Assembly: GCA_014190675.1 (NCBI GenBank)
Contig: BJGT01000016.1
Span: 1-38,793, forward strand
Reading direction: 5' to 3'
DNA: 38,793 nucleotides
Origin: Comamonadaceae bacterium
Lineage (GTDB): Bacteria > Pseudomonadota > Gammaproteobacteria > Burkholderiales > Burkholderiaceae_C
In this document: piece by piece, positions 18,872 through 37,857 of the stretch
How positions within the stretch are numbered: position 1 is the stretch's first letter
How the letters are laid out: every line of letters starts with the position of its first letter
Translations under genes and position numbers: made by a program
Notes under the pieces: generated by a model
What the model was told of the DNA's origin: nothing
Database searches by the model: none
Seen by the model: the letters and a program-made list of their open reading frames with translations, nothing else

Positions 18872-19437
18872 AGCCCAACGAACCCGACCGACGCTTGCGC
18901 ACCCCGCTTGAAGGCAGTGGCCACCGGCCCTGGGACCCGGCGGCGGTGATTGATGCGCCCTTGCAGCTGCACCAAGCCCGCGTGCAGCCGGAGTGGGTGG
19001 ACTACAACGGGCACATGAGTGAATCCTGTTACCTGCTGGTGTTTGGCGACAGTTCCGACGCGTTTTTTCGCTTTGTTGGCATTGACGAGACCTACCGCGA
19101 CGTGGGCGGGCATTCGTTCTACACGGTTGAGACCCACCTGCACAACCTGCGCGAGGTGGCGCTGGCAGCGCCGCTGCGCCTGAGCCTGCAGCTGCTCGAC
19201 CTGGACGACAAGCGGGTGCACCTGTTTCATGCCATGCAGCATGGCGACACCGGCGACCTGCTGGCCACCGCCGAGCAAATGCTGGTGCACGTCGACATGC
19301 AGCAGGGCCGCGCCGCGCCCATCCTGCCGCCCATTCACCAACACCTGCAGGCGATTCTGCAGGCGCATGCGGCCTTGCCGCGCCCGGCGCAGGCCGGCAG
19401 CAGCATCGGCATCCGGCGCAAGCCGGCGCGTACCTAA
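18868..19437 (+). CDS. Hotdog-fold thioesterase, second of a tandem pair
   Basis: Hotdog thioesterase of 189 residues, with an N-terminal extension of about 30 residues over its neighbour. It shares the PEWVDYNGH core but continues MSESCYLLVFGDSSDAFF and FYTVETHLHNLREV. That is the wording of the thioesterase domain fused to rhizobial carnitine dehydrogenases, which act on betainyl-CoA. Two thioesterases make sense if one frees carnitine from carnitinyl-CoA and the other frees glycine betaine from betainyl-CoA. Which does which is open. The C-terminal tail is rich in Arg and Ala. The acyl-CoA dehydrogenase gene begins 18 bases later. Confidence 0.82.
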   Translation: MKPNEPDRRLRTPLEGSGHRPWDPAAVIDAPLQLHQARVQPEWVDYNGHMSESCYLLVFGDSSDAFFRFVGIDETYRDVGGHSFYTVETHLHNLREVALAAPLRLSLQLLDLDDKRVHLFHAMQHGDTGDLLATAEQMLVHVDMQQGRAAPILPPIHQHLQAILQAHAALPRPAQAGSSIGIRRKPART

Positions 19438-19455
19438 GACCCGGAGGCTTTTGCC

Positions 19456-20616: not shown

Positions 20617-20618
20617 GC

Positions 20619-22697
20619 ATGCAGCCTCTTCCCGCCGCCACGCACCCCTTGCGGCGCTTGTTGTCGCCGCGTCATGTGGCGGTGTTTGGCGGTCGGGCTG
20701 CCGCCGAGGTGGTGCGGCAATGCCAACAACTCGGCTTTGCCGGCGAGATTTGGCCGGTGCATCCGCGCCACGAATTCATGGAGGGCCTGCGCTGCTACCC
20801 CAATGTGGCGGCCCTGCCCGCCGCGCCCGACGCCAGCTTCATCGCGGTCCCGCGGCAAGGCACCATTGAGCTGGTGGCAGAACTCTCTGCCCGTGGGGCG
20901 GGCGGGGTGATCTGTTACGCCTCCGGCTTTGCCGAAGCGGGCGGGGAGGGTGTGGCCCTGCAGCAGCAACTGGTGGCAGCCGCTGCCGGCATGGCCTTGC
21001 TGGGCCCCAATTGCTACGGCATGCTGAATTACCTGGATGGCGTGGCTCTTTGGCCCGACCAGCATGGCGGCGAGCGGCTGGCGCGCGGGGTCGCCATCGT
21101 GACCCAGAGCGGCAACATCGGGCTGAACCAGACCATGCAGACGCGCGGCCTGCCACTGGCCTGCCTGATCACGGTCGGCAACAAGGCGGGCGCCAGCATC
21201 GAGGCCATCGTCGGCGCCCTGCTGCTCGACCCCCGCATCAGCGCCATCGGCCTGCACATTGAAGGCCTGGACGATGTGGCGGCGTTTTCCCGGGTGGCCT
21301 TGCAAGCGCTGCGCCAGCGGGTGCCGCTGGTGGCGCTCAAGGCCGGCAGCTCCGCGCTGGGGGCCCAAATCACCATGAGCCACACCAGCTCGCTGGCCGG
21401 GCCGGACGCGCTGTACCAGGCCCTGTTCCAACGGTTGGGTGTGGCGCGGGTGTATGACCCGATAGGTTTGTTGGAAACCTTGAAGTTTTTGCATGTGCAC
21501 GGCGCCCTGCCGGGCCGGCGCATCGTTTCTGCCAGTTGCTCGGGAGGCGAGGCCTCACTGGTGGCCGACCTGGCGCAGGCGCGCGGCCTGGAGATGCCGG
21601 CCTTGCCGGCGCCGGCCCACCAACGCCTGCACGCGGTGCTGGGGAATAAGGTGAATGTGGCCAACCCGCTCGATTACCACACCTACATCTGGGGCGACCT
21701 CGCCGCACAGACCGAGTGCTTTGCCGGCCTGCTGGATTGCCGCTTTGACGCCCACTTGCTGGTGTTGGATTTCCCCCGGCAGGACCGCTGTGCGGCGGAC
21801 GCCTGGCAGACCACGGTCGACGCCTTCATTGCCGCCCAAGCCGGCTACGGCGCACGTGGGGTGCTGGTGGCCTCATTGCTCGAGGGCTTGCCAGAGCCTG
21901 TGGCCCGCCAGTTGCTGGCTCAGGGCATCGCCCCGATGCAGGGCTTGGCCGATTGTCTGGACGCGATCAGCCGCTCGGCTGTCATTGGCGCGGCACAACA
22001 CCGGGCGGCCATGATCACGCCCTTGCAGGCGACCGTGCCCCTGACGCTGGCGGGCGCCCGGTTGCTCGATGAAGCCAGCGCCAAACAGGCCTTGGCGCAC
22101 TTTGGCCTGCCCGTGCCCCAGGGCCGGGTCCTGGACCGGGCACAGGCGCTACCGTTTGCCGCGGCCTTGGGTTACCCGGTGGTGCTGAAAGCACTGGCCC
22201 CGGGGCTGGCGCACAAGACCGAAGCCGGTGCGGTGCGGCTCAACCTGCAGAACGACGCCGAACTGGACGCTGCTTTGGACGCCATGGCCCCCCTGTCTGA
22301 GCAATTTCTGGTGGAGCAGATGGTGCGCGGCGCCCTGGCCGAGTTGCTGGTGGGTGTGAAGCGTGATCCGCAGTTTGGCCTGACCCTGACCCTGGGCGCG
22401 GGTGGGGTGTTTGTGGAACTGCTGCGCGACAGCGTGACGCTGCTGCTGCCCCTGACCCGTACTGATCTGCTCCAAGCACTCCAAACCCTGCAGATGTGGC
22501 CCATGGTGACCGGCTACCGGGGTCGCGCGCACGGCGATGTAGAGGCCTTGCTGGATGCGATTCAGGCCATCCTGGCTTTTGCCACAGCCCATGCCGACCG
22601 CCTGCTGGAGCTCGATGTCAACCCCCTGCTGGTGCTGCCGGTGGGCCGTGGGGTGTTGGCCGTCGATGCGCTGATTCGACTTGCCGATGAGGAGTAA
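20619..22697 (+). CDS. ADP-forming acyl-CoA synthetase, probable gamma-butyrobetaine-CoA ligase
   Basis: NDP-forming acyl-CoA synthetase of 692 residues with fused subunits. In order these are a CoA-binding domain (about 10-130, LSPRHVAVFGG, LLGPNCYGMLNY), the succinyl-CoA-ligase-like domain (about 150-450) and a C-terminal ATP-grasp domain (about 475-690, ASAKQALAHFGLPVPQGR, LKALAPGLAHKTEAGAV). The phosphorylated His is H255 in MSHTSSLAGPDAL. The ATG follows the dehydrogenase stop after 2 bases. In E. coli carnitine metabolism CoA is loaded by CaiC (AMP-forming) and CaiB. Here neither is present, and this ligase would activate gamma-butyrobetaine or carnitine instead. Confidence 0.82.
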   Translation: MQPLPAATHPLRRLLSPRHVAVFGGRAAAEVVRQCQQLGFAGEIWPVHPRHEFMEGLRCYPNVAALPAAPDASFIAVPRQGTIELVAELSARGAGGVICYASGFAEAGGEGVALQQQLVAAAAGMALLGPNCYGMLNYLDGVALWPDQHGGERLARGVAIVTQSGNIGLNQTMQTRGLPLACLITVGNKAGASIEAIVGALLLDPRISAIGLHIEGLDDVAAFSRVALQALRQRVPLVALKAGSSALGAQITMSHTSSLAGPDALYQALFQRLGVARVYDPIGLLETLKFLHVHGALPGRRIVSASCSGGEASLVADLAQARGLEMPALPAPAHQRLHAVLGNKVNVANPLDYHTYIWGDLAAQTECFAGLLDCRFDAHLLVLDFPRQDRCAADAWQTTVDAFIAAQAGYGARGVLVASLLEGLPEPVARQLLAQGIAPMQGLADCLDAISRSAVIGAAQHRAAMITPLQATVPLTLAGARLLDEASAKQALAHFGLPVPQGRVLDRAQALPFAAALGYPVVLKALAPGLAHKTEAGAVRLNLQNDAELDAALDAMAPLSEQFLVEQMVRGALAELLVGVKRDPQFGLTLTLGAGGVFVELLRDSVTLLLPLTRTDLLQALQTLQMWPMVTGYRGRAHGDVEALLDAIQAILAFATAHADRLLELDVNPLLVLPVGRGVLAVDALIRLADEE

Positions 22698-22700
22698 CTG

Positions 22701-23483
22701 ATGAACCCAGCCGTGCGCACTGAGGTTGATGACGGTGTTTTGACCATCACCCTGGACCGGCCCAAGGCCAATGCCATTGATGTCACCACCAGTCTGGCCC
22801 TGCACGCCGCCTTTGTGCGGCTTCAGCAGGACCCCGCCTTGCGCGTGGCCATCATCACCGGCACCGGCCGGTTTTTTTCGGCAGGGTGGGATTTGTCCGC
22901 CGCTGTGGCGGGCGAGGCGATCGACGCCGACCATGGCCCGGGTGGCTTTGCCGGATTCACGGAATTCTTTACGCTGGACAAGCCGGTGATCGCCGCCGTC
23001 AATGGCCTGGCCATCGGCGGCGGTTTTGAACTGGCACTGGCTGCCGACCTGATGGTGGCCGCCAACACGGCCGAGTTTGCCCTGCCCGAAGTTAAGCTCG
23101 GCATGATGGCGGATTCAGGCGGGGTGCTGCGTTTGCCCAAACGATTGCCGCGCGCTATCGCCAATGAGTTGCTGCTCACCGGCCGGCGCATGGGTGCGGT
23201 GGAAGCTCATCGCTGGGGCCTGTTGAACCGGGTGGTGGCGCCCGACCAACTGCCTGAAGCTGCCCGCGAGCTGGCCAGGCAGATCGTGAACGCAGCTCCG
23301 CTGCCCATTGCGGCATTGAAGCAGGTGATGCGGGAAACTGAAACCCAGACGATTCAACAGGCCTACCAGACCCTTCGCGGTGGCAGCCTGCCTGCCTATG
23401 TCGCGATGCTGAAGTCAGAGGACGCGAAAGAGGGTCCGCGCGCCTTTGCCGAAAAGCGGCTGCCGGTGTGGCGCGGGCGTTGA
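22701..23483 (+). CDS. caiD: Crotonobetainyl-CoA hydratase (carnitinyl-CoA dehydratase)
   Basis: Enoyl-CoA hydratase-family protein of 260 residues that reads very close to E. coli CaiD. Shared stretches include [82 protein letters not shown] and [13 protein letters not shown]. The oxyanion-hole residues lie in FSAGWDL and AIGGGFE. It interconverts crotonobetainyl-CoA and L-carnitinyl-CoA. GAGGAG precedes the ATG, 3 bases after the ligase stop. This is the most specific marker that the operon handles gamma-butyrobetaine and carnitine. Confidence 0.9.
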
Positions 23484-25284: not shown

Positions 25285-25537
25285 GACGGCCCTGTGGAGA
25301 CCAAGATTGGAGGCGCCGGGCTGCCGCGGAACCGATCAGCATCCATGGACACTCAAAACGCCAAAACATGCCGTATCTAGGGGAAAGTCTGGATACCGAA
25401 ACAGCCTGAAAATCCGTTACGATGCCTCCGGCGAGCAAAATTCGTTGCCCCTGGCCGTCCGGTGATCCTCTTGTTCATGAAACACATCGCGGCTTGCATC
25501 TAGCTGGTTTGTATTGACACTTAAGGAGTTTTTGACA

Positions 25538-27112
25538 ATGGACAATTCTGAAATTCAAACCGCATCAGGACTCATCCTGGATCGGCGGCAACTCATCGCC
25601 GGTGCGTCGGCCCTCGGTTTGTCGGCGATCTTGGGCGCTTCGCCAGCCATGGCCCAAGGCGCACCGAAAAAGGGTGGCACCCTGCGCATGGGCATGGAGG
25701 GCGGCTCACCGTCTGACAGCCTGGACCCATTGACCTATGCGGACTCCATCCCCATCAACATGAGCCTGATGCTCTGGAACAACTTGGTCGAAGTCGCTGA
25801 CAACGGCGACGCGACCGGTGAGTTGTTCGAGAGCTGGGAAGTCAAGCCTGGCGCTGCCGACTGGATTTTCAATGTGCGCAAGGGCATCAGCTTCACCTCG
25901 GGAAAAACCCTGGATGCAGACGATGTCATTTATTCGCTCAACATGCATCGGGGCGAGACCAAATCTCCCGCCAAGGCGCTGCTGGCCGACATCAAGGAAA
26001 TCAAAAAGCTCTCCGCCACTCAGGTGCAGATCGTCATGAGCAAAGGCAATGTCGACCTGCCTTACAACCTCAGCGATTACCACATTATTGTGGTTCCCAA
26101 CGGCTTCAAGGACTACAGCAAGCCCGACGGCACGGGTGCCTATACCTTGGATGAGTTCCAGCCTGGCGTGCGTGCCACCTTCAAGCGCAAGGCCGGCAAC
26201 TACTGGAAGCCCAACCGCGGTAACTTTGACCGAGTTGAACTGATCTACATTGGCGACGCATCCCAGCGCACCACGGCCTTGCAGACCGGCACGGTAGACC
26301 TGATCAACCGAGTTAATCCTAAAACCGCTGGTCTGCTGGCCAGAGACCCGCGCTTCAAGATTGGGCGCACCCCGGGCATGGGCAACCGCTTCTGCTTTGT
26401 GGCTCACACCGACAAGTCCCCCTTTAGCAACCCTGACCTCATGATGGCCTTGAAGTTCGGCATCGACCGTCAAAAAATCGTAGACAACGTCTACAGCGGT
26501 TTTGCTTCTATTGGTAACGACAACTGCGTCGGTCCAAAAATGAAGTTTTACAACCCCAGCCAGGTGATGAACCGCTACGATCCGGACAAGGCCAAGTTCC
26601 ACTTCGCCAAGTCCAAACACGCTGGTGCCATTGAGTTGCAAGTCTCCGAGGGTGCGTTTTCAGGCGCCACTGACGCCGGCCAGATTTTCCAAGAATCGCT
26701 GTCCAAGGCAGGCATCAACCTTGACTTGAAGCGGGTTTCGGGAGACGGTTATTGGGATAACGTCTGGCTCAAGCAACCTTTTTGCGCTGTCTACTGGGGC
26801 AACCGCCCAACCATTGACAACCAGCTTACGTCGATTTTTTACGGCGGCAAGGGCAATCCATGGAACGACAGCCATTTCGAAAATGCCGAGTTCTCCAGGA
26901 CTTTGGAAGCCGCGCGGGTCGAAATCGACCAGAGAAAACGCCAGGAGCAGTACGCGCGTTGCCAGGAGTTGGTGTCGCAAAACGCCGGTATGATCAATTA
27001 CGCGGTGCAAGATTACCTGGACGCCTACACACCCAAGTTGCAAGGCCTGACACCGTCAGGACGCTATGACTTTGGTGACGGCCGCATTGCTGAAAAAGGC
27101 TGGTTCGCCTAA
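25538..27112 (+). CDS. ABC transporter substrate-binding protein, dipeptide/oligopeptide type (SBP_bac_5)
   Basis: Periplasmic binding protein of 524 residues. The N-terminus has a signal sequence with a twin-arginine-like DRRQLIAG, a hydrophobic stretch and a cleavage site near SPAMAQG. The mature part starts KKGGTLRMGME and shows ELFESWEVKPGAADWIFNVRKGISF and DADDVIYSLNMHRG, typical of DppA/OppA-type proteins. AAGGAG (25523-25528) is 9 bases before the ATG; an earlier in-frame start is unlikely. The 253-bp gap upstream (25285-25537) should hold its promoter, but I cannot name one. It feeds the two permeases and the fused ATPase downstream. Given the neighbours, a quaternary amine or betaine is a plausible ligand. 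Confidence 0.88.
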   Translation: MDNSEIQTASGLILDRRQLIAGASALGLSAILGASPAMAQGAPKKGGTLRMGMEGGSPSDSLDPLTYADSIPINMSLMLWNNLVEVADNGDATGELFESWEVKPGAADWIFNVRKGISFTSGKTLDADDVIYSLNMHRGETKSPAKALLADIKEIKKLSATQVQIVMSKGNVDLPYNLSDYHIIVVPNGFKDYSKPDGTGAYTLDEFQPGVRATFKRKAGNYWKPNRGNFDRVELIYIGDASQRTTALQTGTVDLINRVNPKTAGLLARDPRFKIGRTPGMGNRFCFVAHTDKSPFSNPDLMMALKFGIDRQKIVDNVYSGFASIGNDNCVGPKMKFYNPSQVMNRYDPDKAKFHFAKSKHAGAIELQVSEGAFSGATDAGQIFQESLSKAGINLDLKRVSGDGYWDNVWLKQPFCAVYWGNRPTIDNQLTSIFYGGKGNPWNDSHFENAEFSRTLEAARVEIDQRKRQEQYARCQELVSQNAGMINYAVQDYLDAYTPKLQGLTPSGRYDFGDGRIAEKGWFA

Positions 27113-27122
27113 GGCAGTGGTG

Positions 27123-27194
27123 ATGCCGGCCTGGCAACAGCCGGCATTGCTGGGTTTGGCGCTCGAAGGGCTGGGTTTGCGCCCGGCCCTTTTT
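27123..27194 (+). terminator. Hairpin pair with intrinsic terminator between binding protein and permeases
   Basis: The first hairpin, ATGCCGGC/GCCGGCAT (27123-27130, 27140-27147), has an 8-bp perfect stem. The second, at 27167-27190, has a 9-bp stem (AGGGC..GGG with CCC..GCCCT, one G-T pair) and runs straight into T27190-27194. The second has the form of a Rho-independent terminator. Its place just after the binding-protein gene would give high binding-protein mRNA and lower permease mRNA, a common arrangement in ABC operons. Confidence 0.75.
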
Positions 27195-27277
27195 GCATGT
27201 CGGCCCGCCCGCCCAGGCCCTGTGCTCGCCTAAGCCTGGTCGCTAAGCCGCATCCCTCATCTCAGATCTAGCAAGTC

Positions 27278-28225
27278 ATGGCAAAGTTAATAGTGAACCG
27301 GCTGTTCCTGGGCCTACTGACCCTGTTTGCCGTGTCTGTGCTGATCTTTGTCTGCACGCAAATTCTTCCGGGGGATGTTGCATCGGCGGTGCTGGGTCAG
27401 GGGGCAACGCCTGAGGCTCTGGTGATATTCCGCCGTGAACTTGGGCTTGATTTGCCGCCGCAGACACGCTACTGGAACTGGCTGAGCGGCGCTTTGCAGG
27501 GTGACTTGGGTGTGGCCCTCACCAACAAACGCGTCATCATGGATGATTTGCTGCCCAGATTGCGCAACACCCTGTTTTTAGCCGGGTATGCGGCACTGGT
27601 GGCAATTCCGCTGTCAGTTGGTCTGGGTGTATTGGCCGCTATCAACGAAGGCAAACTGACTGACAGACTGTCCAATGTGCTGACCCTGATCGCCATTTCC
27701 TTGCCTGAATTTTTTGTCGCCTACTTGCTGATTATTTTTTTCGCGGTCAACTTCCAGTGGTTCCCGCCGCTGGCGATGGTCTCCAAAGGCATGACCTTTG
27801 GCGAACGCATATTTCAGACCACCTTGCCCGCCATCACGCTCACGCTGCTGGTGGCTGCCCACATGCTGCGCATGACTCGCAGCTCGGTGCTCTCGGTGAT
27901 GTCCACACCCTATATCGAGATGGCCTTCCTCAAAGGTGCGCCGCGCCGGCGGGTGATCGTGCGGCACGCGCTGCCCAATGCGGCTGCGCCCATCATCACC
28001 GTTGTTGCGCTGAATATGGCCTATCTGGTGGTTGGTGTTGTGGTGATTGAGTCGGTGTTTGTCTACCCCGGCCTGGGTCAGTACATGGTCGATGCGGTCG
28101 CCAAGCGTGACGTACCTGTCATCCAGGCCTGCGGCCTGACTTTTGCCACGGTGTTTGTAGCGCTCAACACGCTGGCCGACATTTTGGTGATCCTGGTCAA
28201 CCCTCGCTTGCGCCAGCAAGACTAA
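27278..28225 (+). CDS. ABC transporter permease, DppB type
   Basis: Inner-membrane permease of 315 residues with six expected helices. The N-terminal helix LFLGLLTLFAVSVLIFVCTQ and the following LPGDVASAVLG are typical of DppB/OppB. The cytoplasmic EAA loop, which contacts the ATPase, is about YIEMAFLKGAPRRRVIVRHALPNA. It ends ILVILVNPRLRQQD. It lies 165 bases after the binding-protein gene, past a terminator hairpin, and 23 bases before the second permease. It belongs to the same importer. Confidence 0.9.
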   Translation: MAKLIVNRLFLGLLTLFAVSVLIFVCTQILPGDVASAVLGQGATPEALVIFRRELGLDLPPQTRYWNWLSGALQGDLGVALTNKRVIMDDLLPRLRNTLFLAGYAALVAIPLSVGLGVLAAINEGKLTDRLSNVLTLIAISLPEFFVAYLLIIFFAVNFQWFPPLAMVSKGMTFGERIFQTTLPAITLTLLVAAHMLRMTRSSVLSVMSTPYIEMAFLKGAPRRRVIVRHALPNAAAPIITVVALNMAYLVVGVVVIESVFVYPGLGQYMVDAVAKRDVPVIQACGLTFATVFVALNTLADILVILVNPRLRQQD

Positions 28226-28248
28226 ATGTTTCGAGTCCTGCAAATACC

Positions 28249-29082
28249 ATGAAACTTTTTGGTCACCGGCTCACCGCCTCAGCCGCTTTTGGCGCTGTTG
28301 TGGTGGCGCTGTTTATGGCTATCTCTTTGTTCACGCCCTGGCTCGCGCCGTACGCTGAGTCGGCCAGCGTGGGTGGCACCTGGGACGAGCCGTCGGTCAA
28401 GATGATATTCGGCGCCGATCAGATCGGCCGCGACATGCTCACCCGGATGATGTACGGCAGCCGCATGACCATCGGCGTGGCCTTGGCGATCACGGCGCTG
28501 TCTTTTTTGATCGGCATTCTCACTGGCCTGGTCAGCGCCGTGGTGGGCGGCTGGGTGGATATTTTCTTCACGCGCCTGGTCGATGTCATTTTGTCCATCC
28601 CCAGCCTGATTTTTGCACTCATCATTTTGGGCGTTTTTGGCTCGAGCATCCCAGTGCTTATTTTGACGATTGCGGTGCTTGACTCAACCCGCGTGTTTCG
28701 GCTGTCCCGCGCATTGGGTATGAACCTGACGGTGATGGAATATGTCGAAGCCGCTCGCCTGCGCGGCGAAGGCCTTTGGTGGGTGATCACCCGAGAAATA
28801 TTGCCCAACGCCCGCGCGCCGCTGGTGTCTGAGTTTGGCCTGCGTTTTTGCTTTAACTTCCTGTTTATTGCTGGCCTGTCTTTTCTTGGTCTGGGTATCC
28901 AGCCGCCCTATGCTGATCTGGGCGGCATGGTGCGCGAGAACGCCGCCGCCATCAACTTCGGCATGATGGCGCCGATCTACCCGGCCACCGCCATTGCCTT
29001 GCTCACCGTGTCGGTCAATCTGGTGGTCGACTGGATGCTGTCCATCGACGCCAGGCCCTCGGGCGCGCAGGCTGAACTCTGA
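28249..29082 (+). CDS. ABC transporter permease, DppC type
   Basis: Second permease of the importer, 277 residues. After the first helix comes the family's periplasmic loop with FGADQIGRDMLTRMMYGSRMT. The EAA loop is EYVEAARLRGEGLWWVITRE followed by ILPNARAPL. Near the C-terminus it has FIAGLSFLGLGIQPPYADLG, typical of DppC. It pairs with the DppB-type protein to form the transmembrane channel. The fused ATPase gene starts 15 bases downstream. Confidence 0.9.
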   Translation: MKLFGHRLTASAAFGAVVVALFMAISLFTPWLAPYAESASVGGTWDEPSVKMIFGADQIGRDMLTRMMYGSRMTIGVALAITALSFLIGILTGLVSAVVGGWVDIFFTRLVDVILSIPSLIFALIILGVFGSSIPVLILTIAVLDSTRVFRLSRALGMNLTVMEYVEAARLRGEGLWWVITREILPNARAPLVSEFGLRFCFNFLFIAGLSFLGLGIQPPYADLGGMVRENAAAINFGMMAPIYPATAIALLTVSVNLVVDWMLSIDARPSGAQAEL

Positions 29083-29097
29083 GAAAGATTGCCGGGC

Positions 29098-30732
29098 ATG
29101 GACGACCGCACCATTTTGAACATCACTGGCTTGCGTCTGGTCAGCGTGGCCGGCCATGTGATTGTTGACCGGGTTGACCTGCACCTGCAGCGTGGCGAAG
29201 TGCTCGGCCTGATTGGCGAAAGCGGCGCCGGCAAATCCACCATCGGTCTGGCTAGCATGTGTTACGCCCGGGCCGGCGTGCACATTGAGCACGGCGAGGT
29301 GATGCTGGGTGGCATCAACATCCGGGCGCTGGATGCCGAGGGCCGGCGCAATGTGCGCGGCAAGCGCATCGCCTACATCGCCCAGTCGGCAGCGGCGGCC
29401 TTCAATCCCGCCCACAGCCTGATGGACCAGGTCTGCGAGGCGCCTGTCATCCATGGGCTCATGAGCCGCACCGAGGCCGAAGCCTGGGCGCGCCAGCTGT
29501 TTACTTCGCTGGACCTACCTGACCCGCAAAATTTTGGTTCGCGCTACCCGCACCAAGTCTCGGGTGGCCAATTGCAGCGTGCCATGGCGGCCATGGCGAT
29601 GTCCTGCCGACCTGATGTGCTGGTGTTAGATGAGCCGACTACCGCACTCGATGTCACCACACAAATCGAGGTCCTGATTCTGCTCAAGTCGCTGATTCGC
29701 GAGTACCGCACAGCAGCGCTCTACATCACCCATGACCTGGCCGTGGTGGCGCAGGTGGCCGACCGCATCAAGGTGCTGCGCGGGGGCAAAGAGGTGGAAG
29801 AAGGCCTGACTGACCAGATCCTGCACAACGCCCAGCAAGACTACACCGCCCGGCTGGTGGCTGTGCGTGGGGCTGCGGCCAATGAGCGGGCGGCTGCGCA
29901 CACCGTCAAGCCAGAGACCGTTTTGTCTGTTATCGATTGTCATGCCTACTATGGTGATTTTCATGTGATCAAGGGCGTCACGCTGGATGTCAAAAAAGGT
30001 GAGACAGTGGCCGTGGTGGGCGAATCAGGCTCGGGCAAATCAACCCTGGCGCGCATAGTCACCGGGCTATTGCCGCCAAGAAGTGGCCAACTGCTGTTCC
30101 GGGGCCAAGCCATGCCGGCAACCCTGAAGGCGCGCGACAAAGAACTCAAGCGGCGGATGCAACTGGTCTACCAGATTCCCGACGTGGCCATCAACCCACG
30201 GCAAACCCTGCTGGAGATCATCGGGCGACCGGTGCAGTTTTATTTTGACGTCAGTCGAAGCCAAGCCCTGCGGCGGGTTGAAGAACTCATGACCCTGGTG
30301 GAGTTGCCGCTCGATTACTTGCAGCGCCGACCGGGGCAGCTCTCGGGCGGCCAAAAGCAGCGGGTCTGCATTGCCCGGGCTCTGGCAGCTCAACCCGATC
30401 TGATCATCCTCGATGAGCCCACCTCAGCGCTCGACCCGCTGGTAGCTGAAGAAATCCTCAAACTGTTGCGTCGCTTGCAGAGCGAGTTGGGTCTGTCCTA
30501 TGTGCTGATCACCCATGACCTTGATGTGGTGCACCGCATTGCGCACCGCACCGCGGTGATGCTGCAGGGCGGGTTTGTTGCATTCGATACCACCGAGGCG
30601 ATTTTTGACGGCCCCTACCACCCCTACACCGAGCGGCTGATCAAGGCTGTGCCGGTGATGCGCAGCGACTGGCTCGACGGCATTCTGGCTCTGCGAGCGC
30701 AGACCGCCTCCGGCGTTCGCTCACACGTTTGA
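29098..30732 (+). CDS. ABC transporter ATP-binding protein with two fused nucleotide-binding domains (DppD-DppF type)
   Basis: Single chain of 544 residues holding both ATPase halves of a peptide-type importer. Domain 1 (about 1-260) has Walker A GESGAGKST, signature VSGGQLQRAM and Walker B VLVLDEPTTALD. Domain 2 (about 280-535) has Walker A GESGSGKSTLA, signature LSGGQKQRVCIARAL and Walker B LIILDEPTSALD. Dpp and Opp systems usually have these as two genes; the fused form occurs in GsiA-like members. The start is taken as the ATG at 29098. Its last 12 bases overlap tail-to-tail with the convergent mttB-like gene, leaving no room for a terminator between them. Confidence 0.9.
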   Translation: MDDRTILNITGLRLVSVAGHVIVDRVDLHLQRGEVLGLIGESGAGKSTIGLASMCYARAGVHIEHGEVMLGGINIRALDAEGRRNVRGKRIAYIAQSAAAAFNPAHSLMDQVCEAPVIHGLMSRTEAEAWARQLFTSLDLPDPQNFGSRYPHQVSGGQLQRAMAAMAMSCRPDVLVLDEPTTALDVTTQIEVLILLKSLIREYRTAALYITHDLAVVAQVADRIKVLRGGKEVEEGLTDQILHNAQQDYTARLVAVRGAAANERAAAHTVKPETVLSVIDCHAYYGDFHVIKGVTLDVKKGETVAVVGESGSGKSTLARIVTGLLPPRSGQLLFRGQAMPATLKARDKELKRRMQLVYQIPDVAINPRQTLLEIIGRPVQFYFDVSRSQALRRVEELMTLVELPLDYLQRRPGQLSGGQKQRVCIARALAAQPDLIILDEPTSALDPLVAEEILKLLRRLQSELGLSYVLITHDLDVVHRIAHRTAVMLQGGFVAFDTTEAIFDGPYHPYTERLIKAVPVMRSDWLDGILALRAQTASGVRSHV

Positions 30733-32298
30733 ATCAGGGAACGACGCCTTGCGGCGGTTCATGTAATCCAGCACCGCCTCATCGGCGGCCGGATCCATCG
30801 GGGGCAGCTCATACTCTGCCAGTTGCTTTTTCCAGGAGGCGTTGGCCCGCGCCGTCAGATCGCGGGAACCCTCAGCCTCCCACTGCTCGAAGCTGTTGTT
30901 GTCGGTGATGGGTGAGCGGTAAAACGCGCTCTCGAAATTAGCCTGGGTGTGGGCGCAGCCCAAAAAGTGCTTGCCCGGGCCAACCTCTCGAATGGCGTCC
31001 ATGGCCTGGCCGTTCTCCGACAGGTCTACGCCGCCCAGCAGGGTGTGCATCATGCCGGCCTGGTCGACGTCCATGATGAATTTTTCATAGCCCATGGACA
31101 GGCCGCCTTCGAGCCAGCCCGCGGTGTGCAAGACAAAATTGACCCCGCCCAGGCAGGTCGGCAGCATGGTGTTGGCCGACTCAGAAGCGGCCTGTGCATC
31201 AGAAATCTTCGAGCCACACAGCCCGCCACCCGAGCGGAACGGCACGCCCAGTCGGCGCGCCAGGGCCGCCATCACGTAGAGCACCAGGGCCGGCTCTGGT
31301 GTGCCAAAGGTCGGGGCGCCCGATTGCATGGAAATGGACGAGGCGAAACTGCCCATCACCACCGGCGCGCCTGGGTTGACCAGTTGCACAAAGGCCATGC
31401 CAGCCAGCGACTCGGCCAGGGTCTGCGCGGCAGTGCCGGCCACTGTGACCGGCGACATGGCCCCAGCCAGAATGAAGGGCGTGATGATGGTCGCTTGGTT
31501 GGCCCGCGCATACACCTTGGCCGCGCCCAGCATGGTCTCATCGAAGGTCATCGGGGAGTTGGCGTTGATCAGGTTGATGACACAGGTTTTTGGCTTGCCG
31601 GTCAGTGGGTCCAGATAGTCGTCGCCAAACAGAAGCCGGGTCATCTCTACCGTGTCACGCGCCCGCTCGGGGTGGGTGACCGAGCCCATATAGGGCTTGT
31701 CGGTGAACTTCATGTGGGCGTACACCATGTCAAAGTGGCGCTTGTTGACCGGCAGGTCCACTGGCTCGCAAATCGTGCCGCCCGAATGGTGCAGGGCGTT
31801 GGCCATGTAGGTCAGCTTGACGAAATTTTGGAAGTCTTCGATGGTGGCGTAGCGGCGACCGCGGTCCAGATCGCGCACAAAGGGCGAGCCGTAGGCCGGT
31901 GCAAACACCGTGTGCTTGCCACCGATGAGCACGCTGTGCGCCGGGTTGCGCGCATGCTGCGTGAACTCGCGTGGCGCCGTGGCCTGCACCAGGCTGCGGC
32001 ACAGGCCGCGCGGGAAGCGCACCCGCTCACCCTTGATGTCGGCGCCGGCGGCCCGGAACAGCGCCAGGGCTTCCGCGTCATCCCGAAAATCAATGCCGGT
32101 TTCTTCCAGGATGGTGTCTGCATTGCGTTCAATGATTTGCAGACCTTCTTCGTCAAGCACCTCGTAGTAGGGAATTTTGCGCGTGATGTAGGGGACAAAA
32201 CTGCTGCTTCTGGCAGACCGTGCGGCCCGCTTGGCTTCGCGCCCGCCGCCGGCTCGTTTGCCTCGAGGGGCCTGTATTTCGGTTTGAGCGTCGCTCAT
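30721..32298 (-). CDS. MttB-superfamily corrinoid methyltransferase, non-pyrrolysine
   Basis: Trimethylamine-methyltransferase-family protein of 525 residues. The frame is open throughout with no in-frame amber codon, so unlike true MttB it needs no pyrrolysine. Known non-pyrrolysine members demethylate glycine betaine (MtgB), proline betaine (MtpB), carnitine (MtcB) or gamma-butyrobetaine (MtyB) and pass the methyl group to a corrinoid protein. Family features are EETGIDFRDDAEALALFR, GSPFVRDLDRGRRYATIEDF and GGLCGSKISDAQA. The N-terminus is basic (PRGKRAGGGREAKRAARS). AGGAG lies 6 bases before the ATG at 32298. No corrinoid protein gene is adjacent. It diverges from sdaA and its partners. 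Substrate inferred from context only. Confidence 0.85.
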   Translation of the reverse strand: MSDAQTEIQAPRGKRAGGGREAKRAARSARSSSFVPYITRKIPYYEVLDEEGLQIIERNADTILEETGIDFRDDAEALALFRAAGADIKGERVRFPRGLCRSLVQATAPREFTQHARNPAHSVLIGGKHTVFAPAYGSPFVRDLDRGRRYATIEDFQNFVKLTYMANALHHSGGTICEPVDLPVNKRHFDMVYAHMKFTDKPYMGSVTHPERARDTVEMTRLLFGDDYLDPLTGKPKTCVINLINANSPMTFDETMLGAAKVYARANQATIITPFILAGAMSPVTVAGTAAQTLAESLAGMAFVQLVNPGAPVVMGSFASSISMQSGAPTFGTPEPALVLYVMAALARRLGVPFRSGGGLCGSKISDAQAASESANTMLPTCLGGVNFVLHTAGWLEGGLSMGYEKFIMDVDQAGMMHTLLGGVDLSENGQAMDAIREVGPGKHFLGCAHTQANFESAFYRSPITDNNSFEQWEAEGSRDLTARANASWKKQLAEYELPPMDPAADEAVLDYMNRRKASFPDSNV

Positions 32299-32566
32299 AA
32301 GTTCTCCTGAAGGCGGTAGACGGACCGCAAGCCGGCCCACAACAGCTGCAGTATGGGGAGCCTGCGCACCCCGGCGTGGTCAGCATGCGACACCATTTTG
32401 CATGCGAACGGCAGCGTCGATTCAGCCCCCATCGGGCTGGCCCGGCGCTCGGCTGCGGTCGCTTCCTGATGGACCGATGTCGTTCTGCTGACATTTGTGG
32501 CTTGGCAGCTCAGCACAATGCATTGCTGCGCAGACCCCTTTTTCACATGTTTCAAGAAAGCCCTAG
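32299..32566. promoter_or_regulatory. Divergent control region with direct repeats and a palindrome
   Basis: This 268-bp gap separates the minus-strand methyltransferase gene from sdaA. It holds two direct copies of GCATGCGA (32383-32390 and 32400-32407), 17 bases apart start to start, about 1.6 helical turns. It also has a perfect CAATGCATTG palindrome (32516-32525), 42 bases before sdaA. These are reasonable operator candidates for a shared regulator. I cannot assign one, and no -35/-10 pair stands out. Confidence 0.5.
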
Positions 32567-33958
<1,392 letters not shown>

Positions 33959-33961
33959 AGC

Positions 33962-35986
33962 ATGCGGTATTTCCTGGGTATAGACACCGGTGGCACCTAC
34001 ACCGACGCGGTGCTGCTGGACCAAGACAAGCAGGTGGTGGCAGCGGCGAAGAGCCTGACCACCCGGTTTGACCTTGCTGTTGGCATCAGTGCCTCACTGG
34101 ACCGGCTGCCCAAGGAAGGGTTGGCCCAGGTGATGCTGGTGTCGCTGTCCACCACGCTGACGACCAACTCGGTGGTCGAAGGCAAGGGCTCGCCGATCTG
34201 TGTCTTGCTGGCCGGCTACGAGGCGGCCCAGATCAAGTCCAGCGGGCTGCTTGAGCTGGTGGGTGCTGAGGCCATTGTGTCCTTGCCCGGCGGCCATGAC
34301 GCGGGCGGCCATCCGGCTGCGGCGCTGGATGAGGCGGCGTCCAAAGCTGCCATCTTGCGCCATGCGCCGCGTGTCAGCGCATTTGCTATTTCGGCCAGTT
34401 TTGCGGTGCGCAACCCGGCGCATGAGCAGCAGCTGCGCGCCTGGGTTGAAGCACTGTGTGACAAGCCGGTCACCTGCGGCCATGAGCTGGCCTCCAGCCT
34501 TGGGGCACCCCGACGCGCTTTGACCGTGGCCTTGAATGCGCGCATGATTTCCCACATCAAGGCCTTGATTGAATCGGTCAAGCGCACCCTGGCCTTGCAT
34601 CAAGTCTCGGCGCCCTTGATGATGGTCAAAGGTGACGGCACGCTGGTCAATGTCGCCTCGGCGCTGCAGCGGCCGGTCGGCACCGTGCTGTCGGGCCCCG
34701 CTGCCAGTTTGCTCGGCGCCTGCGCGCTGAGTGGCTTGAGCGACGCCATCGTGGCCGACATGGGTGGCACCACCACCGACATTGCCATCGTGCGCGGCGG
34801 CCAGCCCGCCCTGAGTTTTGACGGGGCCATGATTGGCAGCTGGCGCCCCATGATTGAAGCGGTCAAGGTCTATGCCATCGGCCTCGGAGGGGACAGCGAG
34901 ATCCGCATGCTTGGCGGCCAGGGCCTGGCCATCGGGCCGCGCCGGGTGCTGCCCTTGAGCCTGCTGGCCCATGAACACCCCAAGGTGCTGGCCGTGCTGG
35001 AGCGGCAGCAAACCGAGTCACCGCATGCCAGCCAGATCCGCTTTGTGCAGCGGCTGCAAAGCCACGATGCCCTGATTGACCGTTTGCCCGATGATGAGTT
35101 GCGCGCCTGGGAGCAGTTGGCCCAGGGGCCGCTGGACATGGAGCACTGCAACATCCATGACCGCGTGATGTCCCGGGCGCTAGCGCGGCTTGAGCGCAAG
35201 GGTCTGGCTATTTACAGTGGCTTCACACCCAGTGACGCGGCGCATGTGCTGGGTCTGTCTGACCATTGGAGCCAAGACGCAGCGGTATTTGGCGCCAGGA
35301 TCTGGGCCCGGCAAATGCGGCACCTGTATGGCCTGGGCACCTGGACCCTGGGCGACGCCGTCGCGCCCTCGCGCCAGGTGGTGGATCTTGTGATCGCCAC
35401 CATCTCGCAAAAGCTGATCGAGGCTGGCCTTAACGATGAAGGTCAACTTAACGAGTCAAATGCAGGCCGGCTCGCCGGCCTGCTGACCCAGCTGGCCTTG
35501 AGCCCGGGCTCAGGTTCGGGCGCGGCGGGCGCCCACCCATTGTTCAAGCTCCAGTTTGCCCCTGATTTGCCGCTGGTCGCGGTGGGTGCGCCGGCAGGCA
35601 GTTACTACCCTGCAGTGGCCCGTGGTCTGGGAATCGCCTTGGTGTTGCCGCCCTTTGGCGAGGTGGCCAATGCGGTGGGCTCGGTGTTTGGCCGGGTGTC
35701 GCAGCGGGTTCACATGACCGTGACGCAGCCGGTGCGGGGGGTGTATCGGGTGTTTACCCCGGATGGGCCCCGGGATTTCGCTGCCCTCGACGCTGCCCTG
35801 GCCTTGGCGCGCGATCTGGCGGCCGGTGAGGCACATCTGCGCGCCCTGCAGGCCGGTGCGGCCCAGGTCGACGTGCGCTTTACCCAAAGCGACAACAGTG
35901 TCAGCAACGACATCGACGGCCACATGTTTTTCGAGGCCATCGTCACGGCCATTGCATCGGGGCCGCCGGTGATGCTGGGCTCCTGA
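33962..35986 (+). CDS. HyuA-like hydantoinase/oxoprolinase-family protein (ASKHA fold), no HyuB partner
   Basis: ASKHA-fold ATP-dependent protein of 674 residues. The phosphate-binding motifs are FLGIDTGGTYTDAVLL at residues 4-19 and IVADMGGTTTDIAIV near residue 265. A C-terminal Gly-rich FAPDLPLVAVGAPAGSYYPAVA follows. HyuA proteins normally work with a HyuB subunit, and none is present here. The gene sits 3 bases after sdaA and 4 bases before a protein with two [4Fe-4S] motifs, opposite an MttB-type methyltransferase. An ASKHA ATPase with a ferredoxin domain is the plan of the RamA-type activators of corrinoid methyltransferases. A split activator is therefore one reading; an amidase of hydantoin or oxoproline type is the other. 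Confidence 0.78.
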   Translation: MRYFLGIDTGGTYTDAVLLDQDKQVVAAAKSLTTRFDLAVGISASLDRLPKEGLAQVMLVSLSTTLTTNSVVEGKGSPICVLLAGYEAAQIKSSGLLELVGAEAIVSLPGGHDAGGHPAAALDEAASKAAILRHAPRVSAFAISASFAVRNPAHEQQLRAWVEALCDKPVTCGHELASSLGAPRRALTVALNARMISHIKALIESVKRTLALHQVSAPLMMVKGDGTLVNVASALQRPVGTVLSGPAASLLGACALSGLSDAIVADMGGTTTDIAIVRGGQPALSFDGAMIGSWRPMIEAVKVYAIGLGGDSEIRMLGGQGLAIGPRRVLPLSLLAHEHPKVLAVLERQQTESPHASQIRFVQRLQSHDALIDRLPDDELRAWEQLAQGPLDMEHCNIHDRVMSRALARLERKGLAIYSGFTPSDAAHVLGLSDHWSQDAAVFGARIWARQMRHLYGLGTWTLGDAVAPSRQVVDLVIATISQKLIEAGLNDEGQLNESNAGRLAGLLTQLALSPGSGSGAAGAHPLFKLQFAPDLPLVAVGAPAGSYYPAVARGLGIALVLPPFGEVANAVGSVFGRVSQRVHMTVTQPVRGVYRVFTPDGPRDFAALDAALALARDLAAGEAHLRALQAGAAQVDVRFTQSDNSVSNDIDGHMFFEAIVTAIASGPPVMLGS

Positions 35987-35990
35987 GCCG

Positions 35991-36755
35991 ATGGTAGCCA
36001 CCAGCCCTTCTGCCGATGACATTGGAGAGGCGCTGGCCGGGCACGGGCTGTTTCTGCGCGGCGGGTTGCAGCCAGACCCGGCGCTGGACCAACTGCTGGT
36101 TTTGCCCGGCGGGCAGAGCGCCGGCGTGGTCTGGATGGCGGGCGTGGTCGGTGCTGCGCATTGGGCGAGTTTTTCAGCCTCGTCCTTCTTTGCGGATGGG
36201 CTGCCAGACCCGCTGGACCGCTGGAGCCAGGCGATCGGGGACGAACTGGCCGCGCGCTGGGGCGGGGTAGCGCTCTATCCCTTCAGTGGCCCGCCGTATT
36301 GGCCGTTTCAGCAATGGGCGACCCGCGCCGAGCCCCTGCAAAACAGTCCCTTGATGCTGCGCATCGATCCGGTCTACGGGCTGTGGCACGCCTACCGCTT
36401 TGCCCTGGCCTTGCCCGGGTCGCCGCCAGCCAGTGTGGCCGTCCCAGTGGCAGCCGCAGCGCCTGGGCTGGGCAGCCTGTGCCTGCAGTGTGATGGGCAA
36501 CCCTGCCTGCAGGCTTGTCCTGTTTCGGCGTTTGATGGCGCAAGCTACCGCGTGGAGACTTGTCTGGGCTGGCTGCACGAGGCCGGCGGCGAGCCTTGCA
36601 TGCAGCAGGGCTGCCTGGCCCGGCGCGCCTGCCCGGTGGGGGCAGCCTACCGCTACCCGGCTGAGGTGGCGGCTTTTCATATGAAGGCCTTCGCCGCCCA
36701 TCACAGGCCGGTCCCGGCACCCGCGCCAGCATTGCCGGCTGTGCCCGGGGACTGA
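35991..36755 (+). CDS. Protein with two C-terminal [4Fe-4S] motifs, ferredoxin-like
   Basis: Protein of 254 residues. The first cluster motif is C164-X2-C167-X4-C172-X3-C176-P. The second is C191, C203, C208 and C214-P. This is the bacterial 2[4Fe-4S] pattern with an elongated second set. The first 160 residues form a separate domain with YPFSGPPYWPFQQWATRAEP and YGLWHAYRFAL, which I recall only in uncharacterised ferredoxin-like proteins of proteobacteria. It starts 4 bases after the HyuA-like gene and is probably its electron-transfer partner. Low-potential electrons for corrinoid reduction would suit the MttB-type neighbour. The role is inferred. Confidence 0.72.
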   Translation: MVATSPSADDIGEALAGHGLFLRGGLQPDPALDQLLVLPGGQSAGVVWMAGVVGAAHWASFSASSFFADGLPDPLDRWSQAIGDELAARWGGVALYPFSGPPYWPFQQWATRAEPLQNSPLMLRIDPVYGLWHAYRFALALPGSPPASVAVPVAAAAPGLGSLCLQCDGQPCLQACPVSAFDGASYRVETCLGWLHEAGGEPCMQQGCLARRACPVGAAYRYPAEVAAFHMKAFAAHHRPVPAPAPALPAVPGD

Positions 36756-36792: not shown

Positions 36793-37857
36793 ATGCGTCC
36801 ACAATCAACCATGATTAAGAAATCAACCATGCGCGCCGTGCTGTTGACGGGTTACGGCGGCTACGACCAGTTGCAGTACCGCACCGATGTGCCCCGGCCC
36901 GAGCCGGCAGCGGGCGAGGTGCTGGTCCAGGTGGGCGCCTGCGGCGTCAACAACACTGATGTCTGGACCCGCGAAGGCGCCTACGGCGCCAGCGAGCAGT
37001 CGGGCTGGCAGGGCAGTGCCTTCAGTTTTCCGCGCATCCAGGGTGCCGACAGCGTCGGCCGCATCGTCGCGGTGGGCGCGGGTGTGTACGCAGACCGTCT
37101 GGGCGAGCGCGTCATGGTCAACCCCACCCTGTACGGCCCCTCGGGCGACGGCCTGTTTGAAGCCACCTACCTGGGCAGCGAGCGCGACGGTGGCTTTGCC
37201 GAGTTCGTCAGCGTGCCCGATGCCAATGCCCACGCCATCACCTCCACTTTGGCTGATCATGAGTTGGCCAGCTTCATGACCTCCTACCTGACGGCCGAGC
37301 ACATGCTCAACCGGGCGGCATTGGCGGCGGGGGAGACGATTCTGGTGACCGGTGCCTCAGGCGGTGTTGGCTCGGCGCTGGTGCAATTGGCCACCATCCG
37401 TGGCGCCCATGTGGTGGCGGTGATCGGCCGCGGCAAGGAGGTGCATCTGGCGGCCCTGGGCGTGCAGCGCTTCATCCTGCGCGACGAGCCCGACTATGCA
37501 GCGGCATGGCAGCGCCAACTGCCAACGCGCCAGATCGATGTGGTGGCCGATGTGGTGGCCGGTGACAAGGTACCGGTATTGCTGGACCTGCTGGCAGTGG
37601 GCGGGCGCTATGTGACGGCGGGGGCCATTGCCGGCCCGATGGTGACGATCGACTGGCGCAAGCTCTACCTCAAGCACCTGACACTGCTGGGCGCCACCAT
37701 GGGCACACAGGCAGAAGCGCGGCAGATCGTGCGCTATGTGGAAGCGGGCCAACTCAAGCCCCTGATCGCCGGTATCTACCCGCTGGAACAGCTGGTGCAG
37801 GCGCAGCAGGCCTTCCAGACCCGCACGCATTTCGGCAAGCTGGTAATCACCCTCTGA
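36793..37857 (+). CDS. Zinc-independent MDR-family oxidoreductase, quinone-reductase-like
   Basis: Medium-chain dehydrogenase/reductase of up to 354 residues. The N-terminal catalytic domain has PAAGEVLVQVGACGVNNTD. The nucleotide-binding domain has ILVTGASGGVGSALVQLA. The GHE motif for catalytic zinc reads QGAD, and the four-Cys structural-zinc loop is absent, so it should be a zinc-free NAD(P)H reductase like quinone oxidoreductases. Three in-frame ATGs compete as starts: 36793, 36811 and 36829. The last gives MRAVLLTGYGG, the usual family beginning, and none has a clear ribosome-binding site. It follows the ferredoxin-like gene by 37 bases. Substrate unknown. Confidence 0.83.
   Translation: MRPQSTMIKKSTMRAVLLTGYGGYDQLQYRTDVPRPEPAAGEVLVQVGACGVNNTDVWTREGAYGASEQSGWQGSAFSFPRIQGADSVGRIVAVGAGVYADRLGERVMVNPTLYGPSGDGLFEATYLGSERDGGFAEFVSVPDANAHAITSTLADHELASFMTSYLTAEHMLNRAALAAGETILVTGASGGVGSALVQLATIRGAHVVAVIGRGKEVHLAALGVQRFILRDEPDYAAAWQRQLPTRQIDVVADVVAGDKVPVLLDLLAVGGRYVTAGAIAGPMVTIDWRKLYLKHLTLLGATMGTQAEARQIVRYVEAGQLKPLIAGIYPLEQLVQAQQAFQTRTHFGKLVITL

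What the first reader, a model, noticed from the sequence alone, without database searches (positions are those of the whole stretch)
30721..36755. Non-pyrrolysine MttB-type methyltransferase divergent from sdaA, a HyuA-like ASKHA protein and a 2[4Fe-4S] protein
In anaerobes, MttB-family enzymes work with a corrinoid protein and a RamA-type activator, which is an ASKHA ATPase joined to a ferredoxin domain. Here an ASKHA protein and a separate two-cluster protein share an operon opposite an MttB homologue, in what appears to be an aerobic betaproteobacterium full of betaine genes. This could be an undescribed betaine demethylation system with a split activator. No corrinoid protein is in the window.
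Basis: inference. Interest (0 to 1): 0.78.

Follow-up and report, generated by a model that had tools for sequence, protein, structure and literature searches.

The report
Betaine-demethylation genes with a B12-type helper
A bacterium carries a known kind of vitamin-B12-dependent betaine-demethylating enzyme beside two unstudied helper genes, one of which looks like a small cousin of the human vitamin-B12-processing protein joined to iron-sulfur clusters.

Summary
The genes are real: a non-pyrrolysine MttB diverges from sdaA–hyuA–FeS–adh. The core system is not undescribed. The same genome encodes the corrinoid protein MtgC, DUF1638, MetF, MtgD and a complete one-piece RamA on contig C25: the gene set of the aerobic MtgBCD betaine demethylase reported in 2025 (PMC12478193). 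A split activator that replaces RamA is therefore not supported.

The unexpected part is the '2[4Fe-4S] protein'. Its predicted structure places it with MMACHC (human CblC), QueG and reductive dehalogenases (sequence support is weak): a cobalamin-handling fold plus two [4Fe-4S] sites. MttB lies directly upstream of it in 21 of 54 loci. In 259 sampled genomes it is in 21 of 23 with MttB and 2 of 236 without at 150 bits or more (19 of 236 counting weaker matches). The HyuA-like ASKHA protein has no separate HyuB; it is in 15 of 23 MttB genomes and 0 of 236 others. A HyuA protein is also induced with an anaerobic betaine-methyltransferase cluster (PMC9768040).

Best reading: accessory cobalamin-reduction or repair factors for MttB–MtgC, in addition to RamA. 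Function is inferred, not tested.

The parts
30721..32298 (-). MttB-superfamily methyltransferase, MtgB-like, non-pyrrolysine (525 aa from the likely ATG; the ORF runs to 32340)
   Evidence: PF06253 E 1.2e-231; best PDB sequence matches 4yyc (769 bits), 2qne and 9yce 'Glycine betaine methyltransferase'; 68% identical to the Sinorhizobium meliloti MttB that lies next to mtgC
32299..32566 (.). divergent intergenic region; single TGTC-N8-GACA inverted repeat at 32478-32493, role unknown
   Evidence: aligned with L011, L012, L014; 0.51 expected per window by chance, so weak
32567..33958 (+). sdaA, L-serine ammonia-lyase (end of the C1/serine route to pyruvate)
   Evidence: TIGR00720 697.7 bits, cut-off 345.1
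33962..35986 (+). HyuA-like stand-alone ASKHA protein, 674 aa; glycine-rich nucleotide-binding-type motifs conserved
   Evidence: PF05378 and PF01968; alignments A2 and A5; the only HyuB domain found in the genome is in a 1230-aa open frame that also carries a HyuA match
35991..36755 (+). FeS protein, 254 aa: MMACHC/QueG-like predicted fold with two [4Fe-4S] sites
   Evidence: A1, 42 sequences; AF2 pLDDT 89.5; the 50 PDB matches listed (of 87) are all MMACHC, QueG or PceA
36360..36398 (+). stretch with the invariant GLWHAYR motif, in register with the human MMACHC HPRFGGWFAIRG region
   Evidence: profile match of this region to MMACHC at E 0.42 and relative L063 at E 7e-4
36480..36632 (+). eight invariant Cys (C164, C167, C172, C176, C191, C203, C208, C214), two predicted [4Fe-4S] sites
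36793..37857 (+). zinc-type alcohol dehydrogenase/quinone oxidoreductase family gene, last of the run
   Evidence: PF08240 and PF00107; next to FeS also in L011-L015

Best explanation
MttB is the first methyltransferase (MtgB) of the aerobic corrinoid betaine-demethylation system. It moves a methyl group from glycine betaine, or a closely related betaine made by the carnitine/choline genes upstream, to cob(I)alamin on MtgC. MtgD passes it to tetrahydrofolate, MetF oxidises methyl-THF, and SdaA drains the serine formed. RamA on contig C25 is the ordinary ATP-driven activator. The FeS protein is a small member of the MMACHC/QueG/reductive-dehalogenase fold group; it most likely binds or docks cobalamin and, with its two clusters, reduces or repairs corrinoid that has fallen out of the cycle in an aerobic cell. 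The HyuA-like ASKHA protein most likely works as its ATP-using partner. Shown here by computation: gene identities, the MtgC-RamA set in the genome, co-occurrence, predicted fold of FeS. Inferred: substrate, cobalamin binding by FeS, direction of electron flow, and the role of HyuA (least certain). Rough confidences: MttB/MtgC assignment 0.85; FeS acts on cobalamin 0.65; FeS plus HyuA as one accessory pair 0.35.
For: Contig C25 holds a GbdR-like regulator, MtgC, DUF1638, MetF, MtgD, RamA, BetB, a GMC oxidoreductase and a homocysteine methyltransferase. No GbcA-type monooxygenase was found in the assembly: the single Ring_hydroxyl_A match scores 50 bits against a GbcA cut-off of 670. FeS: AF2 pLDDT 89.5, pTM 0.85; the 50 PDB matches listed, of 87, are all MMACHC (best E 3.8e-4, prob 1.00), QueG or PceA; at E up to 1, PF16690 MMACHC is matched by 23 of 42 members (best 0.003) and QueG TIGR00276 by 23 of 42 (best 9.4e-6); relative L063 matches MMACHC at E 7e-4. 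Position: MttB directly upstream of FeS on the same strand in 21 of 54 loci, 12 of them within 100 nt; HyuA directly upstream in 11 of 54. Same 259 genomes: MtgC in 24, RamA in the same 24, MttB in 23, FeS (>=150 bits) in 21 of 23 MttB+ and 2 of 236 MttB-, HyuA (>=600 bits) in 15 of 23 and 0 of 236. G259, with MtgC and RamA but no MttB, lacks FeS and HyuA. In 10 further HyuA stretches, HyuA lies directly beside QueG in three and a Fer4_19/CDGSH-type protein in two. A HyuA-type protein is in, and more abundant with, an anaerobic betaine-methyltransferase cluster (PMC9768040, section 14 read).
Against: FeS homologues of 95-134 bits occur in 17 genomes without MttB or MtgC, and two more at 269-273 bits, so the family is not tied to MttB alone. 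In 12 genomes of family f91 FeS lies beside an argB-like gene, with no MttB in the 16.5-17 kb stretch. G205 and G243 have MttB but lack FeS and HyuA. 16 of 54 FeS loci with 1.5 kb or more upstream have neither MttB nor HyuA directly before FeS. HyuA is missing from 8 of 23 MttB genomes; none of 10 HyuA stretches of other genomes contains MttB, and in five annotated plasmid records HyuA has no Fe-S or QueG neighbour. By sequence the FeS profile finds nothing in the PDB below E 0.039 (QueG); MMACHC comes at E 0.42-0.91 among other ferredoxins, and NapG-type ferredoxin models match 29 of 42 members (best 6.2e-5). TM-scores are low (0.35-0.48 by query). L063 was tried because it looked MMACHC-like. 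The HyuA model failed (pLDDT 42.5). 19 of the 23 MttB+ genomes lie in two families (f87, f91), so the counts are far from independent; the own genome's proteins are rows of the search alignments (without it: FeS 20 of 22, HyuA 14 of 22); score limits were set at visible gaps after the searches.
Confidence: 0.5

Rival explanations
1. The HyuA-like protein is a catabolic ATP-dependent amidase or lactamase for some betaine-related or methylated compound, and FeS serves something else; they share the operon only because catabolic genes cluster.
For: Closest solved relatives of HyuA are 5-oxoprolinase and N-methylhydantoinase subunits. In L023 hyuA-FeS lies between sarcosine-oxidase alpha/gamma genes and a dimethylglycine-dehydrogenase-type gene. 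None of 10 HyuA stretches from other genomes contains MttB.
Against: No separate HyuB: the only HyuB domain found is in a 1230-aa open frame that also carries a HyuA match. HyuA (>=600 bits) is in 0 of 236 MttB-free genomes, odd for a general amidase. Fe-S or QueG-type neighbours in 11 of 54 FeS loci and 5 of 10 HyuA stretches.
Confidence: 0.25
2. One reading: HyuA plus FeS form a split RamA that replaces the normal activator.
For: ASKHA plus Fe-S composition; tight operon; co-occurrence with MttB.
Against: Full RamA with RACo domains on C25; RamA in all 24 MtgC genomes of the sample, including all 15 with HyuA.
Confidence: 0.07
3. FeS is an electron carrier for the later demethylation steps (dimethylglycine and sarcosine oxidation), not for cobalamin.
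For: FeS lies before an 854-aa FAD/GcvT (dimethylglycine-dehydrogenase-type) gene in L018, L020 and L023, and after sarcosine-oxidase alpha and gamma genes in L023.
Against: The fold matches are to B12 proteins, not simple ferredoxins; in 21 of 54 loci the gene directly upstream is MttB, in 12 within 100 nt.
Confidence: 0.12
4. FeS is a B12-dependent reductase with its own small-molecule or RNA substrate, like QueG or a dehalogenase.
For: Predicted fold and two clusters; relatives in genomes without MttB.
Against: Association with MttB; only about 250 aa.
Confidence: 0.06

Closest known systems
Aerobic MtgBCD(E) betaine demethylase / split methionine synthase of Ruegeria pomeroyi (PMC12478193) and Phaeobacter inhibens (PMC5764234)
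   Same: MttB-type MtgB, MtgC, MtgD, MetF, DUF1638, RamA and a homocysteine methyltransferase are all in this genome
   Different: MttB is on another contig beside sdaA, hyuA and FeS. The main text of PMC12478193 holds none of the terms ferredoxin, hydantoinase, ASKHA, iron-sulfur, 4Fe-4S, oxoprolinase, MMACHC or QueG; PMC5764234 holds no 'hydantoinase', and the ferredoxin passages shown concern NIL/ferredoxin proteins or the RamA-like protein. PMC12478193 (sections read) names Alpha-, Gamma- and Deltaproteobacteria; the nearest relatives here are Burkholderiales-type records
RamA/RACo corrinoid activators
   Same: ASKHA ATPase and Fe-S chemistry near a corrinoid system
   Different: HyuA matches no RACo domain and no Fe-S domain; a true RamA is also present
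MMACHC (CblC), QueG, reductive dehalogenases (PceA)
   Same: Predicted fold; MMACHC-like GWFAxR-type motif; two cluster sites, as in QueG and PceA (recalled)
   Different: MMACHC has no Fe-S clusters (recalled); the window FeS protein has no QueG or dehalogenase family match at E 0.001, though QueG is matched at up to 9.4e-6 by some relatives
HyuA in anaerobic glycine-betaine methyltransferase clusters (strain DCMF, PMC9768040)
   Same: N-methylhydantoinase A-type protein in an MttB-type cluster, more abundant on glycine betaine
   Different: Anaerobe; 'ferredoxin' and '4Fe-4S' do not occur in the main text; sequences not compared here

Membership tests
MttB superfamily, non-pyrrolysine (MtgB-like) | PF06253 full length, no in-frame stop read as Pyl | tested here: met
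MttB superfamily, non-pyrrolysine (MtgB-like) | methyl transfer from glycine betaine to cob(I)alamin | not testable with these tools
   TIGR02369 (TMA, Pyl) below cut-off, 260 against 525 bits; PDB kin include a glycine betaine methyltransferase
Aerobic MtgBCD system | MtgC, MtgD, MetF and RamA in the genome | tested here: met
   MtgC is below NCBIfam's MtgC cut-offs (205 against 370 and 172 against 310 bits); its 452 bits are with an alignment that contains it
RamA activator | RACo middle and C-terminal ASKHA domains (PF17651, PF14574) | tested here: not met
   absent from the HyuA-like protein; present in the C25 protein
HyuA/HyuB hydantoinase | separate HyuB partner | tested here: not met
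   one HyuB domain, within a 1230-aa open frame
HyuA/HyuB hydantoinase | HyuA N-terminal and ASKHA domains | tested here: met
   but only positions 1-145 of 291 of PF01968 match
MMACHC/QueG/RdhA cobalamin fold | structural match as best hits | tested here: met
   TM by query 0.35-0.48, so a weak match
MMACHC/QueG/RdhA cobalamin fold | sequence family cut-off (PF16690 or TIGR00276) | tested here: not met
   weak matches only, best E 0.003 and 9.4e-6 among 42 members; neither family is listed for the window protein
MMACHC/QueG/RdhA cobalamin fold | binds cobalamin | not testable with these tools
   needs protein

The most novel reading that the evidence does not exclude
The FeS protein and the stand-alone HyuA-type ASKHA form a second, ATP-using class of corrinoid reactivation machine, built from an MMACHC/QueG-type cobalamin module instead of a RACo module, which maintains MttB-MtgC methyltransferases in oxygen-exposed cells and runs alongside RamA.
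Probability: 0.22. Interest if true: 0.8.

Novelty: new variant of a known kind. Interest (0 to 1): 0.6.

Why it matters
How oxygen-tolerant bacteria keep a Co(I)-dependent methyltransferase alive is an open question. A conserved gene with a human-CblC-like predicted fold plus its own Fe-S sites, often directly behind MttB, is a concrete candidate that can be knocked out in Sinorhizobium or Ruegeria laboratory strains. It would also link human B12 processing, tRNA QueG and environmental betaine turnover through one fold, and suggest a role for a HyuA gene already seen, unassigned, in an anaerobic betaine cluster.

Tried and rejected
Split RamA as replacement: rejected, since RamA is present in all 24 MtgC genomes of the sample. 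Plain hydantoinase with a separate HyuB: not supported, as the only HyuB domain found is in a 1230-aa open frame. GbcAB route in this genome: not found in the assembly. Riboswitch or other known RNA: no Rfam match at gathering score in the window. Palindrome between mttB and sdaA: one TGTC-N8-GACA, about as expected by chance. HyuA structure: a 9-row alignment gave pLDDT 42.5, so no fold search was made with it. Second structural aligner: library not available. FeS hits under 30 bits were dropped before counting: 15 of the 55 genomes listed and 10 of the 13. Three of the 17 weak-FeS genomes (G168, G176, G183) also have a distant RamA-like match of 129-137 bits, not counted. In Burkholderiales, MttB and HyuA are each in 1 of 160 sampled genomes, the own genome, so no within-order statistics were possible; FeS above 100 bits was in 3 of 160, two of them divergent relatives in genomes without MttB. 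Literature: nine answered searches, seen as listings, showed no paper describing this FeS family with MttB; only open-licence PMC papers are held, so this is a limited statement. The labels ASKHA motif, Rhodobacteraceae, argB and sixA rest partly on recall; argB-like and phosphatase neighbours were checked by family only in L185 and argB-like kinship in L184-L195 by phmmer.
Full report
What is there. The window is the whole of contig C16 of a 3.69-Mb, 275-contig genome. MttB (30721-32340, likely start 32298) faces away from sdaA, hyuA, FeS and adh, which run on one strand with 3, 4 and 37 nt between them. Upstream are a butyrobetaine-hydroxylase-like TauD protein, an aldehyde dehydrogenase, a GMC oxidoreductase, a BKACE enzyme, a 3-hydroxyacyl-CoA-type dehydrogenase, a thioesterase, an acyl-CoA dehydrogenase, a CoA ligase and an enoyl-CoA hydratase, which together read as carnitine, butyrobetaine and choline catabolism (inference from family names). 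An oligopeptide/nickel-type ABC transporter lies between them and MttB.

MttB and its partners. MttB matches PF06253 over its length and has no in-frame stop. Its closest solved relatives are 4yyc, 2qne and 9yce, the last named glycine betaine methyltransferase. The genome holds four MttB genes; the window one is 55-57% identical to the copy on C121, 42% to C24 and 29% to C87. Contig C25 encodes a GbdR-like regulator, MtgC (B12-binding cap and domain), DUF1638, MetF, MtgD, a 673-aa RamA with 2Fe-2S and RACo domains, BetB, a GMC oxidoreductase and a homocysteine methyltransferase. This is the gene set of the aerobic MtgBCD betaine demethylase (PMC12478193: abstract, results part 1, section 7 and discussion read) and of the split methionine synthase with RamA and DUF1638 (PMC5764234: passages read).

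The FeS protein. A scan of genome contigs with the window protein gave 54 loci in Alpha- and Betaproteobacteria. The window protein and 41 of the 54 loci were aligned (A1; fragments and some close copies left out). Eight cysteines and a GLWHAYR motif are invariant. The window protein has no family match at E 0.001. Among the 42 members, at E up to 1, MMACHC (PF16690) is matched by 23, best E 0.003; QueG (TIGR00276) by 23, best 9.4e-6; and NapG-type ferredoxin by 29, best 6.2e-5. The A1 profile finds no PDB sequence below E 0.039: QueG is first, MMACHC comes at 0.42-0.91 among ferredoxin-type chains. AlphaFold2 gave pLDDT 89.5 and pTM 0.85. Foldseek found 87 PDB matches at E up to 10; the 50 listed are all MMACHC, QueG or PceA, MMACHC first at E 3.8e-4 with probability 1.00, though TM-scores by query are only 0.35-0.48. 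A relative that looked MMACHC-like to me (L063, a 161-aa fragment outside A1) matches human MMACHC at E 7e-4 in the HPRFGGWFAIRG stretch; the arginine there is at position 161 of chain 3sby_A, which appears to be MMACHC Arg161, described as the glutathione anchor near the cobalamin site (PMC10740964: passages read). I read the FeS protein as a cobalamin-handling domain with its own clusters. Cobalamin binding is not shown.

Context of FeS. Of 54 loci, 21 have MttB directly upstream on the same strand (4-nt overlap to about 560 nt apart, 12 within 100 nt), 11 have HyuA directly upstream (4-nt overlap to 12 nt apart), and 22 have neither; six of those 22 have under 1.5 kb of upstream sequence. 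Any MttB is seen in 27 of 54, MtgC in 17, RamA in 9. Of the 21 adjacent MttBs, 13 score best against the window gene and 8 against the C87 copy, two groups far apart in a tree of 18 MttBs, some with long branches. In an S. meliloti record labelled pSymB the annotated order is MttB then 'ferredoxin', with a cobalamin-binding protein, DUF1638, methylenetetrahydrofolate reductase, a methyltetrahydrofolate cobalamin methyltransferase and an ASKHA protein alongside. In 12 of 12 stretches from family f91 (Rhodobacteraceae-like by inference) FeS lies beside an argB-like gene instead, with no MttB in the stretch. In L023 the pair lies between sarcosine-oxidase alpha/gamma genes and an FAD/GcvT protein of dimethylglycine-dehydrogenase type.

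Co-occurrence. The same 259 genomes of the phylum were searched with five queries. MtgC scores above 400 bits in 24, with the next genome at 141. RamA scores above 900 bits in the same 24. MttB at E 1e-50 is in 23, all of them MtgC+. FeS at 150 bits or more is in 23 genomes: 21 of 23 MttB+ and 2 of 236 MttB- (Fisher p 1.5e-26, not corrected for kinship). With the 17 weaker matches of 95-134 bits included, it is in 19 of 236 MttB- (p 7e-18). HyuA at 600 bits or more is in 15 genomes, all MttB+ and FeS+, and in 0 of 236 MttB- (p 6e-19). By genus, 14 of 16 MttB genera carry FeS and 9 of 16 carry HyuA. The own genome's proteins are rows of the alignments used; without it the figures are 20 of 22 and 14 of 22. 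Nineteen of the 23 MttB+ genomes lie in two families, f87 and f91, so these are far fewer independent events than genomes; but members of both families without MttB (G201, G237, G262, G402 in f87; G328 in f91) also lack FeS and full-length HyuA. G259 has MtgC and RamA without MttB and lacks FeS and HyuA; G205 and G243 have one MttB each and lack both. In a separate sample of 160 Burkholderiales, MttB and HyuA are each in 1 (the own genome) and FeS above 100 bits in 3.

The HyuA-like protein. It has the HyuA N-terminal domain and the first half of the hydantoinase A domain. Glycine-rich DTGGT- and GGTTTD-type motifs are invariant across 12 aligned sequences; that these bind ATP is established for the fold (recalled), not tested. 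Its nearest solved relatives are 5-oxoprolinase and N-methylhydantoinase. The only HyuB domain found in the genome lies in a 1230-aa open frame on C2. Ten HyuA stretches from other genomes were read: in three HyuA lies 48-66 nt from a QueG gene, in two it follows a Fer4_19/CDGSH-type protein, in five neither was seen, and none holds MttB. In five annotated plasmid records HyuA has no Fe-S or QueG neighbour; in two of them an MttB gene lies within 10 kb. In anaerobic strain DCMF a HyuA-type protein belongs to the nine-gene betaine methyltransferase cluster and is more abundant on glycine betaine (PMC9768040, section 14 read). The structure model was too poor to use.

Judgement. The window gene cluster is a Burkholderiales-type case of a known aerobic system, with two accessory genes whose link to MttB is strong and whose function is unassigned in what I could read. 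The best mechanism is accessory cobalamin reduction or repair; RamA is present as well, so these genes are not its substitute. The weakest link is HyuA, which could still be a hydrolase.

Noticed in passing
window 7803-23483: Run of genes that reads as gamma-butyrobetaine, carnitine and choline catabolism (TauD/GBBH-like, ALDH, GMC, BKACE, 3HCDH, thioesterase, acyl-CoA DH, CoA ligase, ECH).
   Followed up: partly
window 25514-30732: Oligopeptide/nickel-type ABC transporter with a fused double ATPase, directly beside mttB; its substrate may be a betaine or betaine-containing compound.
   Followed up: no
L182 (G000:C181) 1-1724 and L183 (G000:C74) 6655-7071: Pieces of a second HyuA-like gene in the same genome at two contig ends, possibly one gene cut by the assembly.
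   Followed up: no
L184-L195 (family f91 genomes): FeS homologue beside an argB-like gene in 12 of 12 stretches, away from MttB.
   Followed up: partly
L073, L074, L124, L126: Divergent FeS relatives in genomes without MttB, with a G-x-WFAYR motif in the reads seen; an apparently wider unstudied family.
   Followed up: partly
L172, L174, L175: QueG gene 48-66 nt from the stand-alone HyuA gene.
   Followed up: partly
L018, L020, L023: hyuA-FeS pair before an 854-aa FAD/GcvT dimethylglycine-dehydrogenase-type gene (cut by the contig end in L020); in L023 also after sarcosine-oxidase alpha/gamma genes, with an sdaA fragment further upstream.
   Followed up: partly
window 971-5048: RraA-like, amidohydrolase, LigB dioxygenase and Gfo/Idh/MocA oxidoreductase genes, likely an aromatic-acid (gallate/protocatechuate-type) route.
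   Followed up: no
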